From Aureispira sp. CCB-E (GTDB taxonomy: Bacteria; Bacteroidota; Bacteroidia; Chitinophagales; Saprospiraceae), in contig NZ_CP133671.1 of assembly GCF_031326345.1 (NCBI RefSeq), positions 1,054,001-1,118,000 on the forward strand: a DNA stretch of 64,000 bases, written 5' to 3'. Positions 29,725-45,127 of this stretch are shown in pieces. Under the pieces are notes generated by a model. It saw nothing but the letters and a program-made list of their open reading frames with translations, was not told the DNA's origin and did no database searches. Each line of letters opens with the position of its first letter. Positions within the stretch are counted from its first letter, which is position 1. A program made the translations under genes and the position numbers.

Positions 29725-31431
29725 ATGTCTAAGTTATTAAAACAACTAAAAACGTTAAGAGGTCAAGTTCGAAAATACAAAGATACACTGGCTTATTATG
29801 AAAAACTATTTAATGAAGATGGCGTTATTGACGATCAAGAACGTTCTAAATTGGATCGGTTGAACGCTGCTATTCAAAAAATAGAAGATAATGTTATTCA
29901 AAGGCAGCAAAAATTGAAACTTGGTGGAAAGATTGTCAATAAGGTTAATGAAACGACAGAAAATATTGGTGATTCGCTGAGCAAAAGAGATGATATAGTA
30001 GATCATTCTCTTGTCAACCAAGACGAAAATCCTACCCCACGAGTTGATGATCAACCTAGTCCAAATGATAATTCTTCAATACAAGAAGGTCAGGATAAAT
30101 ATGCTGCAATTGCCGAAACCCCCGCTGTAAAAGAGTTTTTAACTGGTATTCATAAATCAGAAGGTGGTTATGTGGATGATCCTAATGATCCAGGAGGAAA
30201 AACCAAATATGGAATTGCTGAAAAAAGAGAATGGCCTGCTTTTGCAAAAATGTTTGGTTTAGATGTTAATAATCCTTCCTTGATTAAGGATATTACGAAA
30301 CAACAGGTAGACGAATATTATATCAAGACTAGATTTGAGCAAAATGGCTTGGATAAAATTAAGAGTACCAAGGTTATCAATGCTATTTTTGACCAAAGTA
30401 TTTTGACGCCAGGAATTGTTAAAAAGAACATCAAAAGAGCCTTAAATGCATTAGATTCTAACAATAAATTCCCTGTGAATAATTCCGAATTTACAACAGC
30501 TGAAATTGCTGCAATCAATGCTAGTAATGCTAATCAATTGGTTGAAAAATTTGTAGTGTACCAAAATGAGTACTACGATGGATTGGTCAAAAAGAATCCT
30601 ACCAAGTTTGGTAAGTATATCAAAGGGTGGAAAAATAGAACAGCTCGATTGACTGGATTTAAAGGTGGTGAGCAAGAAACTAAGAATACAGAATCTAATA
30701 CTGAGTCTAATTCAGGAAATACCTTTGAGGTGCCTTCGGGTTGGGGCTTGTTGCGAATTGCAAAGGAGCATGGGGTGACAGTAGAGCAGTTGAAGGAATG
30801 GAATGCGGACAAATTAAAAACTTATGGCAATGGAGAGCAAGGCTTTAATGCTGGGGAGACGATTATGATAAAAGGAGGTAGTTCCTCTGGTGGTAATGTT
30901 TCAGATGATGGCAAAACCAGTGAAGGGGAAGAGACCGAATTGGCAGAAGGTGGCTACATTAAACCATCGTGGATTAGAGAGGCAGAAAAGCATTTGGGAA
31001 AAAAAGAAACTGCTAGAATGGTAAAAGATGATCCATGGGTTAAAATGTTGTTTGAAAGCTTAGGGGCGTATGATTGGGCAAAAACTCAAACAGTGCGCGA
31101 TGCCAATTGGTGTGCTGCTTTTGTCTCTTATTGTTTTAAACAAACAGGACAATCTCCTTTATCTGGATTTGATGGCATGAGAGCCAAAACATATGCCGCC
31201 AAATATGGAAAAGAAGTCTCCAGACCTGTTTATGGAGCCTTGGCAATTGTTAAAAGAGGTGGTGCAGGGCATATTGGTTTTGTTGTAGGATACAACAAGA
31301 AAACTAAGGTAATTACAATGTTGGGAGGTAACCAGAACAATTCTGTTAATATCAAAAAGGAGAGAAGGCAAGTAATTGCTTATAAAGTACCTTCTAGTTG
31401 GAATATTCCTGAACAAAACTACTTAGATTAA
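29725..31431 (+). CDS. GH108-LysM-TIGR02594 multidomain peptidoglycan hydrolase
   Basis: A 568-residue protein with no signal peptide. Order: a charged helical N-terminus (1-70) containing an EF-hand-like NEDGVIDDQERSKL; a Ser/Asn/Pro linker; a GH108-type lysozyme domain (about 130-310) with catalytic Glu146 in KSEGGYVDDPNDPGG; a LysM-like segment (334-383); and a C-terminal TIGR02594-like NlpC/CHAP-type domain (about 415-560) with Cys463 (NWCAAFVSY), His516 (GHIGFVVG) and a following NQNNSV. It could cut both glycan and peptide bonds. Lack of a Sec signal points to release by lysis, a phage-type route or a contractile injection system. It is monocistronic. Confidence 0.85.
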   Translation: MSKLLKQLKTLRGQVRKYKDTLAYYEKLFNEDGVIDDQERSKLDRLNAAIQKIEDNVIQRQQKLKLGGKIVNKVNETTENIGDSLSKRDDIVDHSLVNQDENPTPRVDDQPSPNDNSSIQEGQDKYAAIAETPAVKEFLTGIHKSEGGYVDDPNDPGGKTKYGIAEKREWPAFAKMFGLDVNNPSLIKDITKQQVDEYYIKTRFEQNGLDKIKSTKVINAIFDQSILTPGIVKKNIKRALNALDSNNKFPVNNSEFTTAEIAAINASNANQLVEKFVVYQNEYYDGLVKKNPTKFGKYIKGWKNRTARLTGFKGGEQETKNTESNTESNSGNTFEVPSGWGLLRIAKEHGVTVEQLKEWNADKLKTYGNGEQGFNAGETIMIKGGSSSGGNVSDDGKTSEGEETELAEGGYIKPSWIREAEKHLGKKETARMVKDDPWVKMLFESLGAYDWAKTQTVRDANWCAAFVSYCFKQTGQSPLSGFDGMRAKTYAAKYGKEVSRPVYGALAIVKRGGAGHIGFVVGYNKKTKVITMLGGNQNNSVNIKKERRQVIAYKVPSSWNIPEQNYLD

Positions 31432-36611: not shown

Positions 36612-37322
36612 ATGAACCTCAAAATAACCTTATACAGCATTCTGTTTGGTCTCTTTGTTTCGTGTACCAACAATAATACTACATCTACAGAACAGTTGCA
36701 AGTACAATTGGACAAAGCAATTGGTTATAATGATTATTACACGGCTATTTACTATGCCCACGAGCTATTAGCAATCAACCCCAATCTTGATTCTACAGCG
36801 ATACAATTAGCAGAATTATACAAGGTAACTAAAAACTATGCTGGTGCAATCAAAGTTGCAGAGGAGTTAATACCTAAAGTAACTCTAGAAGAACAGCTAG
36901 TTTTATGGACATTAAAAGCAGAATCATTGACAGCATCTCGAAACTATCCAGAAGCAATAGCTGCCTACAATGTACTCAAAGGGCTAGATAAAACGAAGGC
37001 GTTGGAATATTTGTATGAAATTGGTGTCCTGTATTTTCAAGCAAGAGATATTCAGAATGGTATTCAAACAATGGAACAGGTGCGGGATTTGCCAACGAGT
37101 AAAACAACTTTAACTAAAATTCATTCGGATTGGGGAGAAGATAATGTCTCTTATTATTTAGCGGCTCTCAATTATATCGGATATATAAAAATTGAAACCA
37201 ATGATTTTGATGCTGCCACCGCTATTTATGATGAAATTACTCGTTTGGGGGTTCCCTTTAAGTTGGCCGCAGGAAACAAAAAATTGTTGGAACAATTAAA
37301 AGCAAGTACTGCCAAGAAATAA
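36612..37322 (+). CDS. TPR lipoprotein, first paralogue
   Basis: 236 residues; the lipobox is at LFVSC, so Cys18 is the lipid site. The mature protein is about five TPR-like helical pairs (DYYTAIYYAHELLAINPNL; NYAGAIKVAEELI; NYPEAIAAYNVLKGLD; YEIGVLYFQARDIQNGI; NFIGY-like segment). It aligns end to end with the lipoprotein at 38878-39582, including D/YTAI, the KALEYxYEI stretch, LNYIGYIKI and a closing Leu-rich helix. It is nine bases upstream of the gamma-carboxylase gene, hence almost surely co-transcribed. TPRs suggest a docking role in the envelope. Confidence 0.8.
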   Translation: MNLKITLYSILFGLFVSCTNNNTTSTEQLQVQLDKAIGYNDYYTAIYYAHELLAINPNLDSTAIQLAELYKVTKNYAGAIKVAEELIPKVTLEEQLVLWTLKAESLTASRNYPEAIAAYNVLKGLDKTKALEYLYEIGVLYFQARDIQNGIQTMEQVRDLPTSKTTLTKIHSDWGEDNVSYYLAALNYIGYIKIETNDFDAATAIYDEITRLGVPFKLAAGNKKLLEQLKASTAKK

Positions 37323-37331
37323 AACTTGTAT

Positions 37332-38741
37332 ATGACAGAAGTAGCTAACATCGATAAAAAAGTTGGTTTAAGAGTACACCTTTTTGAGTCTGTTCCTGCT
37401 GAGTCTTTAGCTCTTTTTAGAATGGCTTGGGGCGTGATTATGTTTTACTTTTTTGGGAAGCTCATTTTGTGGACGAATCTTGGCAAACTGCGCTATATTG
37501 ATCCTATTTTTCATTTTAGATACCCTGGTTTTGAATGGCTAGAAATTCTTCCGCCAGGACTCATGAATTTTACCTTGTATCTTGGCTGTATTTTGGCTGT
37601 TATGTTACTGTTAGGAGTTTATTATCGGTTTGCTAGTATTGCAATGGCAGTTGTCTACATCTATGTATTTTTAATTGACGTTTCTTATTGGAACAATCAT
37701 TATTATGCCTACGCACTAGTAGCTATTTTTTTTGCTACAACCGATGCACATCAGGCATTTTCAATTGATAAGTGGCGTTTGGGCTTGAGTGGAAAAATTC
37801 CTAGGTGGCAGTTGTATTTGTTTCGATTCCAGTTTCTGGTGATCTACTTTTATGGAGGACTTTCTAAGTTGCAAAATAAAGATTGGATTGATAATATGGC
37901 AGGTTATTCTTTGGTAGAGAATAGTTTTGCGTTAAAAGGTTGGTCGGTCAAACATCACATTATTTATCCTTGCTCGATGTTAATTACTTGGGGAGGAATA
38001 TTTTTTGACCTATTCATAGGAGGACTTTTATTATGTCGAAGAACATTGTGGCTGGCGTTTATTCTTGTCGTTAGTTTTAATATGACGAATGCTTTGTTTT
38101 TGAGAATAGGAACGTTTCCTTATACCATGTTGCTGTCATTTGTTTTATTTATTCCTCCTGTTGAATTAGCTGCATTTATTAACAAACGTTTTAGAAACAA
38201 ACAGCTCGAAGGACAAGCCGAAGTTGTAGAGAAACAAACAGCGTCACTGGTATATCAATCAGTCGTAATGATAAGCTTGGGAGTATTTGTTGTTTTTCAG
38301 TTGTTATTCCCTTTTAGAAGTTGGGCAATAGATGGAAGTGTTTTTTGGACGAAGGAAGGAAAATTATACAGCTGGCATATGATGTCTGGTAGTAGTGATG
38401 TTTATGCTAAAATGAGTGTTGTCGAAATGGACGATACAAAAACAGTAGAGTTGGGTTATTCTGAATTAGTACCTGAGAATTTTTTATCCCCTAGACAGGT
38501 TAAGAGTTTAGGAATCTGGCCGACTTTAGTGCCTCAGTTTGCTCGATTTCTAAAAAAAGAAGCTGAGTTGGCAGGTTTTAAGAATGTTGAAATTAGAGGT
38601 GAAATACTTGTCTCAAGAAATAAGCGCCCTTTTGTGCCCATTGTTCATCCCGATGTTGATTTAGCAAGTGTCGAGACGCATTACTGGAAACACAACGATT
38701 GGATTTTACGCTATTCAGATGAAGATGGTTATTTTAAGTAA
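37332..38741 (+). CDS. vitamin K-dependent gamma-carboxylase homologue (HTTM family)
   Basis: 469 residues from the ATG at 37332. Several transmembrane helices (about 30-280 and one near 310-327) form an HTTM domain, then a soluble C-terminal domain. It matches animal GGCX over its full length from memory: WNNH with His123 (GGCX His160 region), GLSKLQNKDW with Lys179 (GGCX catalytic Lys218 region), MAGYSL, LFLRIGTFPYTML, then LYSWHMM and HPDVD in the C-terminal domain. One oddity is FNMTN where related proteins carry FHxxN. GGCX turns Glu into gamma-carboxyglutamate using reduced vitamin K; bacterial activity is not assured. It lies in an operon with the TPR lipoprotein before it. Confidence 0.85.
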   Translation: MTEVANIDKKVGLRVHLFESVPAESLALFRMAWGVIMFYFFGKLILWTNLGKLRYIDPIFHFRYPGFEWLEILPPGLMNFTLYLGCILAVMLLLGVYYRFASIAMAVVYIYVFLIDVSYWNNHYYAYALVAIFFATTDAHQAFSIDKWRLGLSGKIPRWQLYLFRFQFLVIYFYGGLSKLQNKDWIDNMAGYSLVENSFALKGWSVKHHIIYPCSMLITWGGIFFDLFIGGLLLCRRTLWLAFILVVSFNMTNALFLRIGTFPYTMLLSFVLFIPPVELAAFINKRFRNKQLEGQAEVVEKQTASLVYQSVVMISLGVFVVFQLLFPFRSWAIDGSVFWTKEGKLYSWHMMSGSSDVYAKMSVVEMDDTKTVELGYSELVPENFLSPRQVKSLGIWPTLVPQFARFLKKEAELAGFKNVEIRGEILVSRNKRPFVPIVHPDVDLASVETHYWKHNDWILRYSDEDGYFK

Positions 38742-38764
38742 TCTGATAATTTAAGGCTGTCCTA

Positions 38765-38790
38765 GGAAGTAGCACCTTAGCTAACTACTA
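38765..38790 (+). repeat. partial GAAGTAG/GCTAACTACTA repeat copy
   Basis: GGAAGTAGCACCTTAGCTAACTACTA matches the right two thirds of the repeat at 50026-50062; the CAACGACCAC half is missing. It lies between the carboxylase and the second TPR lipoprotein. Confidence 0.55.
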
Positions 38791-38877
38791 AGGAAGAATA
38801 AAGAAGAATAAACGGTTCGTTACATTATAGGAATAATGTATTGGACAAGCATGATTATATACCCCCAAAATAGAGTT

Positions 38878-39582
38878 ATGAAATACTTGATATATTGTTC
38901 ATTTTTTTTGCTGTTATGGGCTTGTGTGGCACCAGAAACAGTTTCTCATATTGAGAACAAATACAATAGAGCACTCAGTTTAGACGATTATCATACCGCT
39001 ATTGTGTACTTGCATGAAATCGAAGATTTAGATCCTAACAACAACAGCGTGTACAAAAGGTTAGCCGATTGTTACTTCAAAGTAGGAGCTTACGACTCCG
39101 CTATAAAAGCCGTAGATATAGCTCTAAAAGAGGCTAATGAATTAGAACAACGAAAACTATTGTTGTTAAAAGCAAAATCATTGGTTGAACAAACAAATTA
39201 TGTTGATGCTGTGGCTGCTTATATGGCTTTGATTGAGGTAGAACCTAAAAGAGCCTTAGAGTATCGTTATGAGATGGCAGTTTTATATAAAGCACATGGT
39301 GATTTGGGGAATGCCGTCTTGCAAATGGAGAAGAACCTTGATGATCCTTTGGCTAAATTGTTACAACGAGAAATCATTTTAGAAAATGGAGAAAGCGAAC
39401 TCGTTACTTATTATCATGCTAGCTTAAATTTTATAGGGGCAATACAAATACAAGCAAACGATTTGGAAGCGGCTCAAAGAACGTATAAAAAATTATTTCA
39501 GGATAATACTTCGTTTATTCTAGCTCAACAAAACTATCAAATATTATTACAATTGATGCAGCAAAAAACAACCATTCAGTAA
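38878..39582 (+). CDS. TPR lipoprotein, second paralogue
   Basis: 234 residues from the ATG at 38878, which gives MKYLIYCSFFLLLWAC and a lipid site at Cys16; an in-frame ATG at 38836 would bury this signal. Five TPR-like units follow (DYHTAIVYLHEIEDLDP, AYDSAIKAVDIAL, NYVDAVAAYMALIEVEP, YEMAVLYKAHGDLGNAV, LEAAQRTYKKL). It is a paralogue of 36612-37322 with the same repeat layout. 136 bases separate it from the carboxylase, and a terminator follows it. Like its paralogue it probably faces the periplasm or cell surface. Confidence 0.8.
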   Translation: MKYLIYCSFFLLLWACVAPETVSHIENKYNRALSLDDYHTAIVYLHEIEDLDPNNNSVYKRLADCYFKVGAYDSAIKAVDIALKEANELEQRKLLLLKAKSLVEQTNYVDAVAAYMALIEVEPKRALEYRYEMAVLYKAHGDLGNAVLQMEKNLDDPLAKLLQREIILENGESELVTYYHASLNFIGAIQIQANDLEAAQRTYKKLFQDNTSFILAQQNYQILLQLMQQKTTIQ

Positions 39583-39689: not shown

Positions 39690-41228
39690 TTATTTAATTC
39701 GCATAATCCAACGAACACTCATATTCGTTACTCGGTTTTCAATACCTGCTACTCTAAACCGCAAAGGATCTCTATCGCCACCATCTCTAGACGTTGCCAT
39801 ATAACTACCCCAGTTTCCATCATCATCTATTGTGCTAACACCATTGATTATCCCTTGATCCGAGTCATCGGCTTGTACCTGTTCAAAATTATTGGCATCA
39901 TCATTTTGAAATTGTCCACTGACAGTACTTCCTCTTAAAAAACGACCCCTAGATACATCACCAGAGACTGAAGTTGTATTGTTGTTTAGGTTTGGAATAG
40001 GACGACCATTGATAGGACTAGCTGCATCTACAACAGTTCCCCCGACACATTCCACCCAACCAGCAGGTAAACCAGGAAGTCCCCCACCGATATTTCCGTG
40101 CCAAGCAACAATGGATCCGATTGGAACCATTCCATAACCTGCATTAGACCAAATAGCATTACCTGCATTATCTTGACATAGTAGGACATCACCAGCAGTG
40201 GCACCACCACCACGAATACGAACTGTACCATTAACATCCAGTGTTCTACTAGGAGCACCTGTTCCAATACCGACTCGATTGGTACTAGCATCTACCATCA
40301 GACTATTGCCATCTACAATTAAGTCTCCACCATTATCACTTTGCAAATAGAGAGGTGTGTTGGCATTGGTAATCATTTCATTGCCATCAATTCTTAAGGT
40401 GTTCCCAATTTCTAAAACACCAGAGCCAGCAGTACCTGTTGCATCAGTTGTTGCGGTAAATTCTACTCGGCCACCAGCTACTTCCAAACGATCAACAGGC
40501 GTGCCTGTACCAATACCAACTCGGTTGGTGCCTGCATCGACAAAAAACATATTCGCAATCCCGTCAGATTCTATTCTAAAGTTACGATCTAGTCCTTGTT
40601 CATTGAAAATAACTTGTGTGTTGGCATCCAAATCAATAGATGTAGCACCGTTTTCTCTAATAATGAAGCGACCATCATCGCCATCGTCAAATAAGTTAGC
40701 TAACAAGGTACCTCCTGTGTTTTCGTCTCGCCACTCTACATCGCCCCCAAATCGAGAGGTGCCGTTATCTAGAACTGTAAATTTATTGATTCCATTATCT
40801 TGAACGACAAAATCACCCGTTCCAGAAAGGTTGTATGTTAAATTAAAATTGCCTTGTGTAATAGTAGTATTTTCAACTAAAGCACCCCCCATACGAATGC
40901 GGTCAGCACCAGCATTGACATACAATCCATTGTCGGCACTAGCTGTTAAGGTAACTGCTCCCGTAGTTCCTCCACCGACGAGACCTGCGCCTGCTGTAAC
41001 GCTTGTAATATCTCCTCCTGCTGGGATTGCCTGAGTTGCAAGAACGCCATTGGGGTCGGCAACAACCATGCGAGTTCCTGTGCCTCCAAGCACCGTAATT
41101 CTAGCATTTCCTACAACGTGCAGTTTTTCGGTGGGGGCATTGGTTCCAATCCCTACATTTTGTGCTTGTAGGTTGGTTTGAACAGCCCAGAAGCCTAGTG
41201 TAGAAAAAAGTAATAGTTTTTTTATCAT
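39690..41228 (-). CDS. secreted fibre/collar-like protein
   Basis: 512 residues from the ATG at 41228 (MIKKLLLFSTLGFWAVQTNLQAQ signal peptide); six more residues are possible from 41246. The body is a Gly/Asn/Asp-rich beta array with repeated VGIGT...P..LxV motifs (NVGIGTNAPTEKLHV; RVGIGTGTPVDRLEV; RVGIGTGAPSRTLDV), the kind found in phage tail-fibre shafts and Bacteroidota surface proteins. The last ~140 residues resemble a tail-collar domain: GSIVAWHG, LPAGWVEC, GRPIPNLN, GRFLRG, then a closing RWIMRIK. There is no T9SS sorting domain, so the export route past the outer membrane is unclear. It could be an adhesive fibre. No phage genes are around. Confidence 0.75.
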   Translation of the reverse strand: MIKKLLLFSTLGFWAVQTNLQAQNVGIGTNAPTEKLHVVGNARITVLGGTGTRMVVADPNGVLATQAIPAGGDITSVTAGAGLVGGGTTGAVTLTASADNGLYVNAGADRIRMGGALVENTTITQGNFNLTYNLSGTGDFVVQDNGINKFTVLDNGTSRFGGDVEWRDENTGGTLLANLFDDGDDGRFIIRENGATSIDLDANTQVIFNEQGLDRNFRIESDGIANMFFVDAGTNRVGIGTGTPVDRLEVAGGRVEFTATTDATGTAGSGVLEIGNTLRIDGNEMITNANTPLYLQSDNGGDLIVDGNSLMVDASTNRVGIGTGAPSRTLDVNGTVRIRGGGATAGDVLLCQDNAGNAIWSNAGYGMVPIGSIVAWHGNIGGGLPGLPAGWVECVGGTVVDAASPINGRPIPNLNNNTTSVSGDVSRGRFLRGSTVSGQFQNDDANNFEQVQADDSDQGIINGVSTIDDDGNWGSYMATSRDGGDRDPLRFRVAGIENRVTNMSVRWIMRIK

Positions 41229-41300
41229 AACTTGAGGTTTATTCAATTTGATACTTTATAGATTTACTAAAAAAGCACAAATCAAGGTGTATTAAATAGT

Positions 41301-43367
41301 TTATAAATCGGTATTCGTTTCTGGTAACCATTGGTGGATTTTTTCGATGGTCACAGTTGAAGTGTCTAAGGGATTGCCCATTAGGTAGAGCATCTTTAAT
41401 GTTTTTAACTGGGCCAAACTTTCAGGTATTTGCGTTAACCTATTGTTGTTGATATAGAGTGCTGTTAAATGCGTTAGGTTTTTGAAACTTTCAGGAATTG
41501 TTGTCAACTGATTGTTGGTCACTTCAATAATTTCTAATCGTTTTAGTTGATCAAAACCTATCGGCCAATCACTCAATTCATTGCGTTCAAGATTGATTTC
41601 CCTTAAATATTCTAAGGGGCTAAGGTCTGTGGAAATTTTATTGATATTATTCGCATGCAAATCTAATTTTTCTAACTTTTTCCAATTGGCAAGATTTCCA
41701 TGAATACTTAAAATTGTATTTCTACTTAAATCCAATTCAACCAAGTTGCTTAAATGAAACAACACAGTAGGAAAGGATGCGAATTGATTTTTGCTAAGAT
41801 CTAAGCTTTGCAAGGTTTTTAAGTGCTTAAATTCTTGTGGTAGTTCGGATAAAAGATTTTTACTAAGGTCAAGTAGTTGTAGTTGTTTTAGCTGCCCAAT
41901 GGTGGCGGGGATATTTTGAAGTTGGTTGTTTCTCGCCATTAAGTGAGTTAAGCTGCTTGCGGTACCAATTTCATTAGGAAGGTGACTTAGTTGATTATTT
42001 TCAAGGGTTAATACTTGAAGTTGGGGTAATTTTCCAATGCTTGAAGGAAGATGAGTTAACTTATTTTCAGCTAAATTCAAATTTTGTAACTGATTGAAGT
42101 AAGCTATATTTTGTGGTAATAAAGTGAGTTGATTACCCCTCAAATTGAGTGTCTTTAACGATTTTAAAGCTAGGATTTTATCAGAAATAATTTCGATTTT
42201 ATTAAAGGAGAGGTCTAAGCTTGCTAGTTTTTGTAAGGCAACTAAGACTTCAGGAAAGGTGTTTATGGAGTTATTGCTTATTTTTAAGCTCGTGAGTGAG
42301 GTTAGTTGAGCTACTGTTGAGGGCAGCTCTTGAAGTTGATTATTCGTCAAATTCAAATTTTGGAGCAAGGTCAACCGACCAATAGAAGCAGGAAGATTTT
42401 GTAGCCGATTGCTTTTTAATCCTAAGTGTTCAAGTTGTTGTAAGTTCCCAATCGTCAACGGAAGTTCTTTTAATCGGTTGCGTTCGACATACAAGTGCTT
42501 TAATGTTTGCAGTTGATGAAGTGTTTCGGGGAGGCTTAGAATTTGATTGGAAGAAACATCCAAAATTTGTAATTGTTCTAAACTCAAAATCTGTTTAGGA
42601 AAAGAATTGAGGCGATTGTTGGATAAATTGAGTGTGTGCAATTGCTGAAGATTGTTAATAACATCAGAAAGCGTATCTAGCCTATTGTAGCTTATATCCA
42701 ATATTTTTAAGGCAGGCAAATGTAGTAGAGGAATAGCTTGTAGTTGGTTAGAACTCAAATTAAGTACCTCTAAAGTCTCGATTTGACCAATTTCTTTGGG
42801 GATAGAGTGCAATCGATTGCGTTTTAGGTTGAGTGTTTGCAACTGTTTTAGTGTGCCAATTTCTGAAGGCAAGGATTCTAATTCATTATCTTTTAATAGT
42901 AATACTTGTAAATGCTCAAGCTGCCCTATAGCAGTTGGTAGTTTTTGTAAACCATTTTTTTCTAAATGGAGTTTTTGTAAATTTTTTAAAGGTTTTAGAT
43001 CTTTTGGAAAACCTTGTACGCCATTATTAGATAAGTTTAAATATTGGAGATGGCTTAAGTTTGTTAGCTCGTTAGGCAGTATAGAGATATAATTTCCCTC
43101 CAAATTGAGTGCTTGCAAGTGTTGAAGCGTAAAGATAATGGTTGGAATGCTTGTTAATTTAGGGGTTTGATTACTCAGATTGACGCGATAGATGTTTTTA
43201 CCTTTCGACAATGCAGCTTCTATTTGGGCAATAGAAGTATACTCTAGTTGTGAAGCTAGAAGATTTTGGGGTAATAATGTTTGAGATATTATTAAGGAGG
43301 TGGTAGATCTTAAAAGCAAACAAACAATAATTAACCATTTTACACAGCAATATAAATAATCACGCAT
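41301..43367 (-). CDS. exported leucine-rich repeat protein
   Basis: 688 residues. After a signal-like N-terminus (MRDYLYCCVKWLIIVCLLLRS) the whole chain is about 25 leucine-rich repeats with a period of 23 residues (LNLSNNxLxxxPxxIxxLxxLQx). No catalytic domain, sorting signal or anchor follows. It should be a curved solenoid for protein or glycan binding. The repeats are more regular than those of the LRR-proteases. It starts 72 bases before the fibre-like gene in the same direction, so they may share a transcript. Repeat regularity at the DNA level is low, so it is not a recent expansion. Confidence 0.88.
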   Translation of the reverse strand: MRDYLYCCVKWLIIVCLLLRSTTSLIISQTLLPQNLLASQLEYTSIAQIEAALSKGKNIYRVNLSNQTPKLTSIPTIIFTLQHLQALNLEGNYISILPNELTNLSHLQYLNLSNNGVQGFPKDLKPLKNLQKLHLEKNGLQKLPTAIGQLEHLQVLLLKDNELESLPSEIGTLKQLQTLNLKRNRLHSIPKEIGQIETLEVLNLSSNQLQAIPLLHLPALKILDISYNRLDTLSDVINNLQQLHTLNLSNNRLNSFPKQILSLEQLQILDVSSNQILSLPETLHQLQTLKHLYVERNRLKELPLTIGNLQQLEHLGLKSNRLQNLPASIGRLTLLQNLNLTNNQLQELPSTVAQLTSLTSLKISNNSINTFPEVLVALQKLASLDLSFNKIEIISDKILALKSLKTLNLRGNQLTLLPQNIAYFNQLQNLNLAENKLTHLPSSIGKLPQLQVLTLENNQLSHLPNEIGTASSLTHLMARNNQLQNIPATIGQLKQLQLLDLSKNLLSELPQEFKHLKTLQSLDLSKNQFASFPTVLFHLSNLVELDLSRNTILSIHGNLANWKKLEKLDLHANNINKISTDLSPLEYLREINLERNELSDWPIGFDQLKRLEIIEVTNNQLTTIPESFKNLTHLTALYINNNRLTQIPESLAQLKTLKMLYLMGNPLDTSTVTIEKIHQWLPETNTDL

Positions 43368-43688: not shown

Positions 43689-43691
43689 TTA
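43629..43691 (+). ncRNA. candidate small RNA ending in an intrinsic terminator
   Basis: TATATTTG at 43616-43623 fits the Bacteroidota -7 consensus, though the -33 region (GCTG at 43593) is poor. About 60 bases later a stem (43655-43666 with 43673-43684, one G-T pair) runs into seven Ts on the plus strand. No ORF fits in between. The T-run overlaps the stop codon of the convergent membrane gene, so the structure might instead be a terminator against read-through. GGTTTTAGGGTT occurs here and again before the 16726 terminator. Confidence 0.35.
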
Positions 43692-44954
43692 TTGAATGGC
43701 ATCAATTGTCCAACTAAAATTAGGAGCTAAAAGGGGCATTTTTCTCCAATTTAACTCTTTTAACCGTATTTCTATAGATTGTCCTTCTTGGTTTCCAATC
43801 AATATTAAATCCCCCGTATTGGTCACTTGATATCTGAAAGGATATTCAACTAAAGTGCCTGTATGAGTCAAATAGAATAGTTGTTCTTCTGGATTGTATT
43901 GAAATTTGTAATCTTGCATCTTATCATCCATGGTTTGAACAATAAAATAATTGCGACGATGTACAAATACCCTTTTCCAGCGTTTGGTGAAGTTAGATAG
44001 GGCAGGTATAGGAACATCATTTTCTAAAAAAGAGTTGACTTCATAAGCACCATGAAAAAGAGGACGAGCTTGCATGTCGTCGTTGAAGTTATTCGCTTCA
44101 AAATAAGGAATAAGACATTCAAATAAGATAAGCCAAATTGAAAGGGTTTTGACCGTAGCATATACAAGTCGTTTGGGATGCTGTTCAAATGCAGGCCACC
44201 AAATCTTAGGAGGGACTAATTTTTGATGAATAAAAAAAGCATATAGTGAAGGGAGGTAAGGTAGAATCAAAATAAACGAGAGGAAGAGAAAAAAACTAGC
44301 ATAGAGTTTTACAGAAATATTAAATCCTATATTGATAGCAAGAACATTGCTCAAAATTCCTAGGGCAAATAAACTACCAATCAAATAGGTTTTTCTAAAT
44401 AACAGCAGGCTGGCTGCAAGAACTTCCAACGCGCCTCCCCAAAATGTATAAATATAGGAACTCCCCATAGTAGACCAAAACAACAAGTCTTTAGGAGTGT
44501 CCCCAACAAATGTGTATAATGTATTCGGTTCTGGTAGGAAAAATTGGCATTTGAATACTTTGTTAAATCCATATAAAAATAACTGCAATGCCAAGTAGTA
44601 CCGAACATATGTATAGAATGCATAGGCTAATTTAGCCTCATTAAGTTTGGGTTGTCGTTGTTTCCAGCAATAAGCTATAACAACCGAAATAATCAATAAG
44701 TTAAAGGTATGAAGATATGCTCCTGTCGAATCTGATGTTAATTGATAAATAAATGGTTCTTGGAGATTAAAAATAAAATGCCCTGTCCATAAGACAAGCT
44801 GCTCAAAAAAAGGGTCAGAGTACGTTCGAAAGGTAGGAATATAATTAGTAGGGGTGGAAAAACTAATGGTAAATAATAAAACAAATAAGATGGTGCTTCT
44901 CCATGTGTATTGTTTTATTGAGGACTTATTACCAAGCGCAGATTTAATAGACAT
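43689..44954 (-). CDS. polytopic membrane protein, HTTM/DoxX-like
   Basis: 421 residues from the ATG at 44954 (MSIKSALGNK); a start at 45017 would add 21 residues. About seven or eight hydrophobic helices are seen (FVLLFTISFS, LLIISVVIAYCW, YYLALQLFLYGFNKVF, IYTFWGGALEVLAASLLL, LYASFFLFLSFILILPYL, LSIWLILFECLIPYF), followed by a ~120-residue soluble C-terminal domain. The LFLYGFNKVFKCQF helix resembles the quinone-family helix of DoxX-like and HTTM proteins. The WNNH and K-L motifs of the carboxylase homologue are absent, so I do not call it a carboxylase. Function unknown. Confidence 0.6.
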   Translation of the reverse strand: MSIKSALGNKSSIKQYTWRSTILFVLLFTISFSTPTNYIPTFRTYSDPFFEQLVLWTGHFIFNLQEPFIYQLTSDSTGAYLHTFNLLIISVVIAYCWKQRQPKLNEAKLAYAFYTYVRYYLALQLFLYGFNKVFKCQFFLPEPNTLYTFVGDTPKDLLFWSTMGSSYIYTFWGGALEVLAASLLLFRKTYLIGSLFALGILSNVLAINIGFNISVKLYASFFLFLSFILILPYLPSLYAFFIHQKLVPPKIWWPAFEQHPKRLVYATVKTLSIWLILFECLIPYFEANNFNDDMQARPLFHGAYEVNSFLENDVPIPALSNFTKRWKRVFVHRRNYFIVQTMDDKMQDYKFQYNPEEQLFYLTHTGTLVEYPFRYQVTNTGDLILIGNQEGQSIEIRLKELNWRKMPLLAPNFSWTIDAIQ

Positions 44955-45127
44955 AGTATGTTTTTTGATAAGTAGTAGCCATTCAGAAAAAATGACAGAA
45001 ACCGCAAAGCAGTACAATGAATAAAGTGCTATTTTAATCTTAGATTAATACATGATTTTTAGATTACCTGCTTATAATCCGTAGTGCAAGGGGGGCTTTG
45101 TAATGGTCTGAATGGCTACCGATAAAG

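What the first reader, a model, noticed from the sequence alone, without database searches (positions are those of the whole stretch)
36612..39582. Gamma-carboxylase homologue between two paralogous TPR lipoproteins
The 469-residue membrane protein matches animal GGCX over its whole length as I remember it: WNNH (His123), GLSKLQNKDW (Lys179), IGTFPY, LYSWHMM and a C-terminal HPDVD region. Both the membrane part and the lumen-type domain are there, not just an HTTM fragment. The flanking TPR lipoproteins are paralogues of each other, which suggests duplication of a partner protein around the enzyme. The FHxxN motif is FNMTN, so the chemistry may differ. A bacterial Glu-modifying system with lipoprotein partners would be new to me; the link between the three is inference from order and 9-base spacing.
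Basis: partly seen in the sequence, partly recalled or inferred. Interest (0 to 1): 0.75.

Follow-up and report, generated by a model that had tools for sequence, protein, structure and literature searches.

The report
Bacterial vitamin-K carboxylase relative with TPR partners
A marine Aureispira bacterium carries an intact relative of the human clotting-factor-modifying enzyme GGCX in a conserved gene trio with two TPR lipoproteins, and its altered active site marks a separate subfamily, which gives a specific testable lead on what these long-unexplained bacterial enzymes act on.

Summary
The 469-residue protein (37332-38741, Aureispira) is a vitamin K-dependent gamma-carboxylase (VKGC) homologue: Pfam HTTM and VKGC lumenal domains, phmmer E=5e-27 to human GGCX, AlphaFold pLDDT 90, and all 16 significant PDB fold matches are GGCX. 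His123 and Lys179 fall on GGCX His160 and Lys218. The flanking TPR lipoproteins are paralogues (36%). The trio is conserved, with the same 9-bp spacing, in a second Aureispira (63%), as VKGC-TPR in a third (48%), and more weakly in two Flavobacteriales MAGs.

VKGC homologues themselves are not new: 37 of 61 relatives have one and this genome has three. The new point is that active-site class tracks gene neighbours. The window's class has FNxxN plus a Lys at GGCX Tyr395 and goes with TPR lipoproteins (5 of 5 loci, 0 of 57 other VKGC loci). The common FHxxT class sits with imelysin lipoprotein and TonB receptor genes. No VKOR was found in the genome; futalosine-type menaquinone genes are present.

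Best reading: a periplasm-facing, menaquinol-driven VKGC-type enzyme whose substrates or adaptors are the TPR lipoproteins. Whether it makes Gla is unproven.

The parts
36612..37322 (+). TPR1: 236-aa TPR lipoprotein, lipobox GLFVSC; first gene of the trio
   Evidence: TPR Pfam hits; lipobox pattern matched; orthologue 57% in L102 at the same place
37332..38741 (+). VKGC homologue, 469 aa (ATG start), HTTM membrane domain + VKGC lumenal-type domain; class FNxxN / Lys344
37698..37700 (+). His123 codon = GGCX His160 (Glu pocket), within WNNH (residues 120-123)
   Evidence: alignment; invariant in 41 homologues; coordinate computed from ATG 37332
37866..37868 (+). [quoted passage not shown]
   Evidence: role from PMC12589487 and PMC9146348
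38076..38090 (+). FNMTN motif (residues 249-253) = GGCX FHCMN; His287 replaced by Asn250
38361..38363 (+). Lys344 codon = GGCX Tyr395 (Glu side-chain pocket); Lys in 4 of 4 clade members, His/Tyr/Phe in 37 other Bacteroidota homologues
38836..39582 (+). TPR2: TPR lipoprotein-like protein, likely start 38878 (234 aa, Cys16 invariant in the three TPR sequences); paralogue of TPR1
   Evidence: orthologue 51% in L102 at the same place; lipobox pattern failed because of Trp at -2
39690..41246 (-). Secreted GIGT-repeat / tail-collar-like protein, convergent; linked neighbour, function unknown, possibly not part of the system
   Evidence: homologue convergent with VKGC in L103 and L104 too; few copies in genome; weak Collar hit in the L104 homologue only

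Best explanation
The trio encodes an inner-membrane, periplasm-facing enzyme of the VKGC family working with two periplasmic TPR lipoproteins. Proposed mechanism, step by step. (1) Menaquinol, made by the futalosine route, enters the HTTM pocket (precursor genes shown; binding inferred from conserved pocket residues). (2) Lys179 deprotonates it and O2 turns it into a strong base, as in GGCX (inferred from the aligned Lys218). (3) The base removes a proton from a carboxylate-bearing side chain held by Asn122, His123 and, in place of GGCX Tyr395, Lys344; CO2 addition would give Gla or a related product (inferred, least certain). (4) The TPR lipoproteins bring the substrate, or are the substrate, taking over in trans the capture role of the GGCX propeptide-binding domain, most of which is missing here (hypothesis; conserved linkage shown, binding not). 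(5) The menaquinone epoxide is not recycled by VKOR, since none was found; de novo synthesis or another reductase would be needed.
For: HTTM + VKGC lumenal domains. GGCX homology 5e-27. AF2 pLDDT 90.2, pTM 0.90; the 16 PDB fold matches with E<=1e-3 are all GGCX, TM up to 0.81 on the query. Residues corresponding to N159, H160, K218, W223, F286, F299, W399 are kept in all 41 homologues. TPR1-VKGC-TPR2 conserved at 63% identity with the same 9-bp gap, VKGC-TPR at 48%, adjacent divergent TPR in L105, TPR about 1.2 kb off in L104. A TPR-family gene in 5 of 5 class-3 loci and 0 of 57 other VKGC loci. The own genome has only two genes of this TPR family at E<=1e-5 and both flank this VKGC. MqnA/MqnD-type genes present. 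The common FHxxT class also has a lipoprotein gene beside it (imelysin), so a lipoprotein partner is a recurrent theme.
Against: No activity data for any close relative. Two residues near the substrate and quinone differ from GGCX (H287->N, Y395->K), also F294->L and R436->S. From memory, the Leptospira homologue epoxidises vitamin K without carboxylating, so retained H160/K218 do not prove carboxylation. No VKOR. The TPR family is widespread in Bacteroidota without a VKGC neighbour, so some adjacency could be passenger. The positive-inside count was indecisive (9 vs 7), so topology rests on homology. The TPR2 lipobox is atypical.
Confidence: 0.45

Rival explanations
1. The enzyme keeps only the quinone half of the reaction: a menaquinol epoxidase/oxygenase, or one that uses the strong base on a different substrate, without making Gla. 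The TPR proteins help that unknown chemistry.
For: Catalytic Lys and quinone-pocket Phe/Trp kept while residues near the substrate change (H287->N, Y395->K, R436->S). GGCX propeptide exosite mostly missing. No VKOR. Recalled precedent: Leptospira VKGC has epoxidase but no carboxylase activity (from memory).
Against: N122 and H123, which hold the Glu side chain in GGCX, are invariant in 41 homologues; a lysine at 395 can still bind a carboxylate.
Confidence: 0.3
2. The TPR lipoproteins are unrelated passengers: a general Bacteroidota periplasmic TPR protein that happens to sit next to the VKGC gene in the Aureispira lineage.
For: The TPR family occurs in 34 of 399 genomes of the order at E<=1e-15, mostly without VKGC in the 1.5-kb flanks. 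Three of five linked loci are from one genus. L104 TPR is 1.2 kb away, divergent and only weakly similar (4.8e-8).
Against: Identical 9-bp spacing kept at 63% identity, two TPR genes flanking in two species, adjacency again in L105 from another order-level lineage; 0 of 57 other VKGC loci. Chance that both family members in the genome fall within 1.5 kb of one of three VKGC genes is about 1e-6 under random placement.
Confidence: 0.2
3. A degenerate or non-catalytic VKGC relative acting as a membrane scaffold.
For: Altered FHxxN and pocket residues.
Against: All core residues conserved across 39-63% identity, with no frameshift or stop; changes are shared by the whole clade, i.e. maintained.
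Confidence: 0.05

Closest known systems
[quoted passage not shown]
   Same: HTTM fold and lumenal-type domain, nine helices in the model that fit TM1-TM9, N159/H160/K218/W223/F286/N290/F299/S398/W399/M401/M402 positions kept
   Different: 469 vs 758 aa, aligned only to GGCX 61-502; H287->N, Y395->K, F294->L, R436->S, K217->S; no C99-C450 disulfide (F62, F406); no VKOR in the genome; substrate unknown
Bacteroidota FHxxT-class VKGC in imelysin-TonB receptor loci (e.g. Riemerella RAYM_09784, Fur-regulated; PMC5609570)
   Same: Same two-domain enzyme, same Lys/His core, lipoprotein gene beside it
   Different: FHxxT, Tyr395 and Val401 instead of FNxxN, Lys and Met; partner is imelysin (PF09375) and a TonB-dependent receptor rather than TPR lipoproteins
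Leptospira VKGC (recalled; homologue noted in PMC4555120)
   Same: Bacterial VKGC homologue
   Different: Not compared by sequence here; that genus is reported to have a VKOR-family protein (PMC4555120), whereas this genome has none detected
SdpB / HTTM-only proteins
   Same: HTTM membrane domain (TIGR04033 hit 29.6 bits)
   Different: Far below the SdpB cut-off of 178.4 bits; the lumenal domain is present here

Membership tests
VKGC superfamily (HTTM + VKGC lumenal domain) | Both Pfam domains above cut-off, full length | tested here: met
   PF05090 187 bits and PF22777 115 bits, cut-offs 27.7
VKGC superfamily (HTTM + VKGC lumenal domain) | GGCX-like fold | tested here: met
   Foldseek E 2e-21, TM up to 0.81, only GGCX entries significant; model pLDDT 90
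gamma-glutamyl carboxylase (GGCX-type enzyme) | Catalytic Lys218 and His160 | tested here: met
   K179 and H123
gamma-glutamyl carboxylase (GGCX-type enzyme) | FHxxN motif and Tyr395 in the substrate pocket | tested here: not met
   FNMTN and Lys344; shared by the clade
gamma-glutamyl carboxylase (GGCX-type enzyme) | Propeptide-binding exosite (GGCX PBD, Tyr425 and residues beyond 502) | tested here: not met
   Alignment ends at GGCX 502; Tyr425 position is Glu
gamma-glutamyl carboxylase (GGCX-type enzyme) | Coupled Glu carboxylation and vitamin K epoxidation | not testable with these tools
   Needs an enzyme assay or mass spectrometry
Vitamin K cycle | VKOR (PF07884) in the same genome | tested here: not met
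   0 matches in own genome; 3 of 61 relatives
Vitamin K cycle | Cofactor supply (menaquinone synthesis) | tested here: met
   Two PF02621 MqnA/MqnD-type genes; the rest of the pathway not tested
SdpB export protein family | TIGR04033 score above 178.4 bits | tested here: not met
   29.6 bits
TPR lipoproteins | TPR repeats and lipobox Cys | tested here: inconclusive
   TPR met for both; lipobox pattern met for TPR1, failed for TPR2 (Trp at -2), though the Cys is invariant in the three TPR sequences aligned

The most novel reading that the evidence does not exclude
A dedicated two-component bacterial modification system: a menaquinol-driven VKGC variant (FNxxN / Lys395 class) that modifies the TPR lipoproteins, or a surface protein they deliver, with the adaptor replacing the animal propeptide-binding domain; more generally, each bacterial VKGC class has its own periplasmic lipoprotein substrate (TPR here, imelysin in the iron loci).
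Probability: 0.3. Interest if true: 0.85.

Novelty: new variant of a known kind. Interest (0 to 1): 0.58.

Why it matters
Bacterial relatives of the vitamin K carboxylase have been recognised for about twenty years (from memory), but I found no paper that names a substrate for one. The match between active-site class and lipoprotein neighbour gives concrete candidates: TPR lipoproteins here, imelysin in the FHxxT class. Mass spectrometry on one cultured strain could test whether gamma-carboxyglutamate, or a new quinol-driven modification, exists in these bacteria and how it works without VKOR.

Tried and rejected
Rejected: HTTM-only fragment or SdpB (lumenal domain present, SdpB score far below cut-off). 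Rejected: chance similarity. Rejected as stated: 'new to bacteria'. Considered the convergent GIGT/collar-like surface protein as the substrate: it is kept beside VKGC in three class-3 loci and few-copy, but its alignment shows no Glu cluster, so it is left as a linked neighbour. Considered the LRR protein (41301-43367) as a partner: LRR genes also lie by two other Aureispira VKGC genes but the genome has about a dozen such LRRs, so this is weak. The positive-inside rule for topology was indecisive. Tree placement of human GGCX is unreliable (long branch). Rfam and tRNA scans of the window found nothing. Literature searches found no paper on bacterial HTTM/VKGC function beyond the Riemerella Fur table; subscription papers on Leptospira VKGC were not available.

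Full report
What is there. The window lies in a complete 7.39-Mb Aureispira genome; Aureispira sp. CCB-QB1 carries a nearly identical locus (L101). Reading + strand: TPR1 36612-37322; VKGC 37332-38741 (ATG start; a TTG at 37326 is also possible); TPR2 with likely start 38878, end 39582; then on the - strand a secreted GIGT-repeat/collar-like protein (39690-41246) and an LRR protein (41301-43367).

The enzyme. Pfam gives HTTM (5e-55) and VKGC_lumenal_dom (3.8e-33) end to end. Human GGCX is found by phmmer at 5.2e-27 over GGCX residues 61-502. AlphaFold on a 41-sequence alignment gave mean pLDDT 90.2, pTM 0.90, with nine long helices in positions that fit TM1-TM9 of GGCX. The 16 PDB matches with E<=1e-3 are all GGCX; the next match has E=0.33. 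Against the residues named in the cryo-EM paper PMC12589487, kept positions are N158, N159, H160, K218, D222, W223, G258, G259, F286, N290, F299, T391, S398, W399, M401, M402, Q446, R476; changed are K217->S, D220->N, A214->G, H287->N, F294->L, Y395->K, Y425->E, R436->S, D442->T, and both cysteines of the C99-C450 disulfide.

Three classes. Across the Bacteroidota homologues the residues at GGCX 287/290/395/401 fall into sets: H-T-Y/F-V (FHxxT), H-N-H-M (FHxxN) and N-N-K-M (FNxxN plus Lys). In the 41-sequence alignment all four window-clade members are N-N-K-M and none of 37 others is; the clade also has a one-residue insertion between Lys218 and DW (KLQNKDW, KISNPDW). It forms a supported group (100/99) that includes a Flavobacteriales MAG at 39% identity. 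GGCX itself is H-N-Y-M; its place in the tree is not reliable because of its long branch.

Gene order. In Aureispira MAG Cli_1 (L102, VKGC 63% identical) the order TPR1-VKGC-TPR2 is the same, with the same 9-bp TPR1-VKGC gap and a 20-bp VKGC-TPR2 gap. In another Aureispira MAG (L103/G004, 48%) VKGC is followed by one TPR lipoprotein, then convergent collar-like and LRR genes as in the window. In Flavobacteriales NORP307 (L105, VKGC cut by the contig end before the FN motif, assigned to this class by its sequence and its SKFNNPDW insertion) a TPR lipoprotein lies directly beside VKGC, divergent. In another Flavobacteriales MAG (L104) a weaker family member lies about 1.2 kb away and the collar-like gene is again convergent with VKGC. 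A profile made only from the Aureispira TPR proteins finds a family member in 5 of 5 class-3 loci and in 0 of 57 other distinct VKGC loci. Two limits apply: most class-3 loci had longer flanks (about 4 kb, L105 and L102 cut by contig ends) than the others (1.5 kb), and the five are one clade, so this is one association kept over time, not five independent ones. In the own genome only two genes of this TPR family reach E<=1e-5 and both flank this VKGC. The TPR family as such is common in Bacteroidota (34 of 399 genomes of the order at 1e-15), often as plain secreted proteins in other gene contexts, so it was probably recruited to the VKGC locus and then duplicated or partly lost.

Contrast that helps. 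Of 25 FHxxT-class loci, 18 have an imelysin lipoprotein (PF09375) and 22 a TonB-dependent receptor in the 1.5-kb flanks, 17 both; none of the other 20 bacterial sequences does. In Riemerella these three genes appear together in the Fur regulon table (RAYM_09779 TonB receptor, RAYM_09784 vitamin K-dependent gamma-carboxylase, RAYM_09789 lipoprotein imelysin; PMC5609570). So bacterial VKGC classes each travel with their own periplasmic lipoprotein gene. That is what an enzyme with a dedicated lipoprotein substrate or adaptor would look like; it is not proof.

Cofactor. Two MqnA/MqnD-type (PF02621) genes indicate futalosine-route menaquinone synthesis. No VKOR match in this genome, and only 3 of 61 relatives have one against 37 of 61 with VKGC. 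If an epoxide is formed it is not recycled by VKOR.

Verdict on mechanism. Shown: homology, fold, catalytic residues, class-specific changes, conserved linkage, cofactor genes, absence of VKOR. Inferred: periplasmic orientation of the second domain (by homology; positive-inside count not decisive), menaquinol as cosubstrate, superbase formation at Lys179. Hypothesis: TPR lipoproteins capture or are the substrate, in place of the missing propeptide-binding region. Open: whether the product is Gla. The recalled Leptospira case (epoxidation without carboxylation) shows that this last step cannot be assumed.

Novelty. A bacterial VKGC is a known kind. The FNxxN/Lys class with TPR lipoprotein neighbours, and the rule that active-site class follows neighbour type, were not found in the papers searched. 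Hence: new variant of a known kind.

Noticed in passing
L108, L013, L077, L075, L018, L007 and others: FHxxT-class VKGC genes lie between an imelysin lipoprotein and a TonB-dependent receptor (17 of 25 loci with both); some instead have DUF4856 or di-haem oxidoreductase genes upstream (L008, L056). Imelysin is a candidate substrate.
   Followed up: partly
window 39690-41246 (-), L103 6195-7670 (-), L104 5312-6850 (-): GIGT-repeat, collar-like secreted protein convergent with class-3 VKGC in all three loci where that side is readable; few copies in the genome.
   Followed up: partly
G000:C1:1646k (L002/L048) and 1170k (L003/L049): Two further VKGC homologues in the same genome, one FHxxT-like and one FHxxN-like; the first has a convergent LRR gene.
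   Followed up: partly
window 43689-45017 (-): 442-aa membrane protein with DoxX-like look (LQLFLYGFNKVF, NVLAINIGF) but no Pfam or NCBIfam hit; about 4 kb downstream of the trio.
   Followed up: no
L047 (G004:C260) and L081 (G284:C108): Two VKGC homologues with FN at the FH position but Gln or His at 395; possible intermediates to the FNxxN/Lys class.
   Followed up: no
window 29725-31431 (+): 568-aa protein that reads like a cell-wall hydrolase with LysM and amidase-like parts (by eye only).
   Followed up: no
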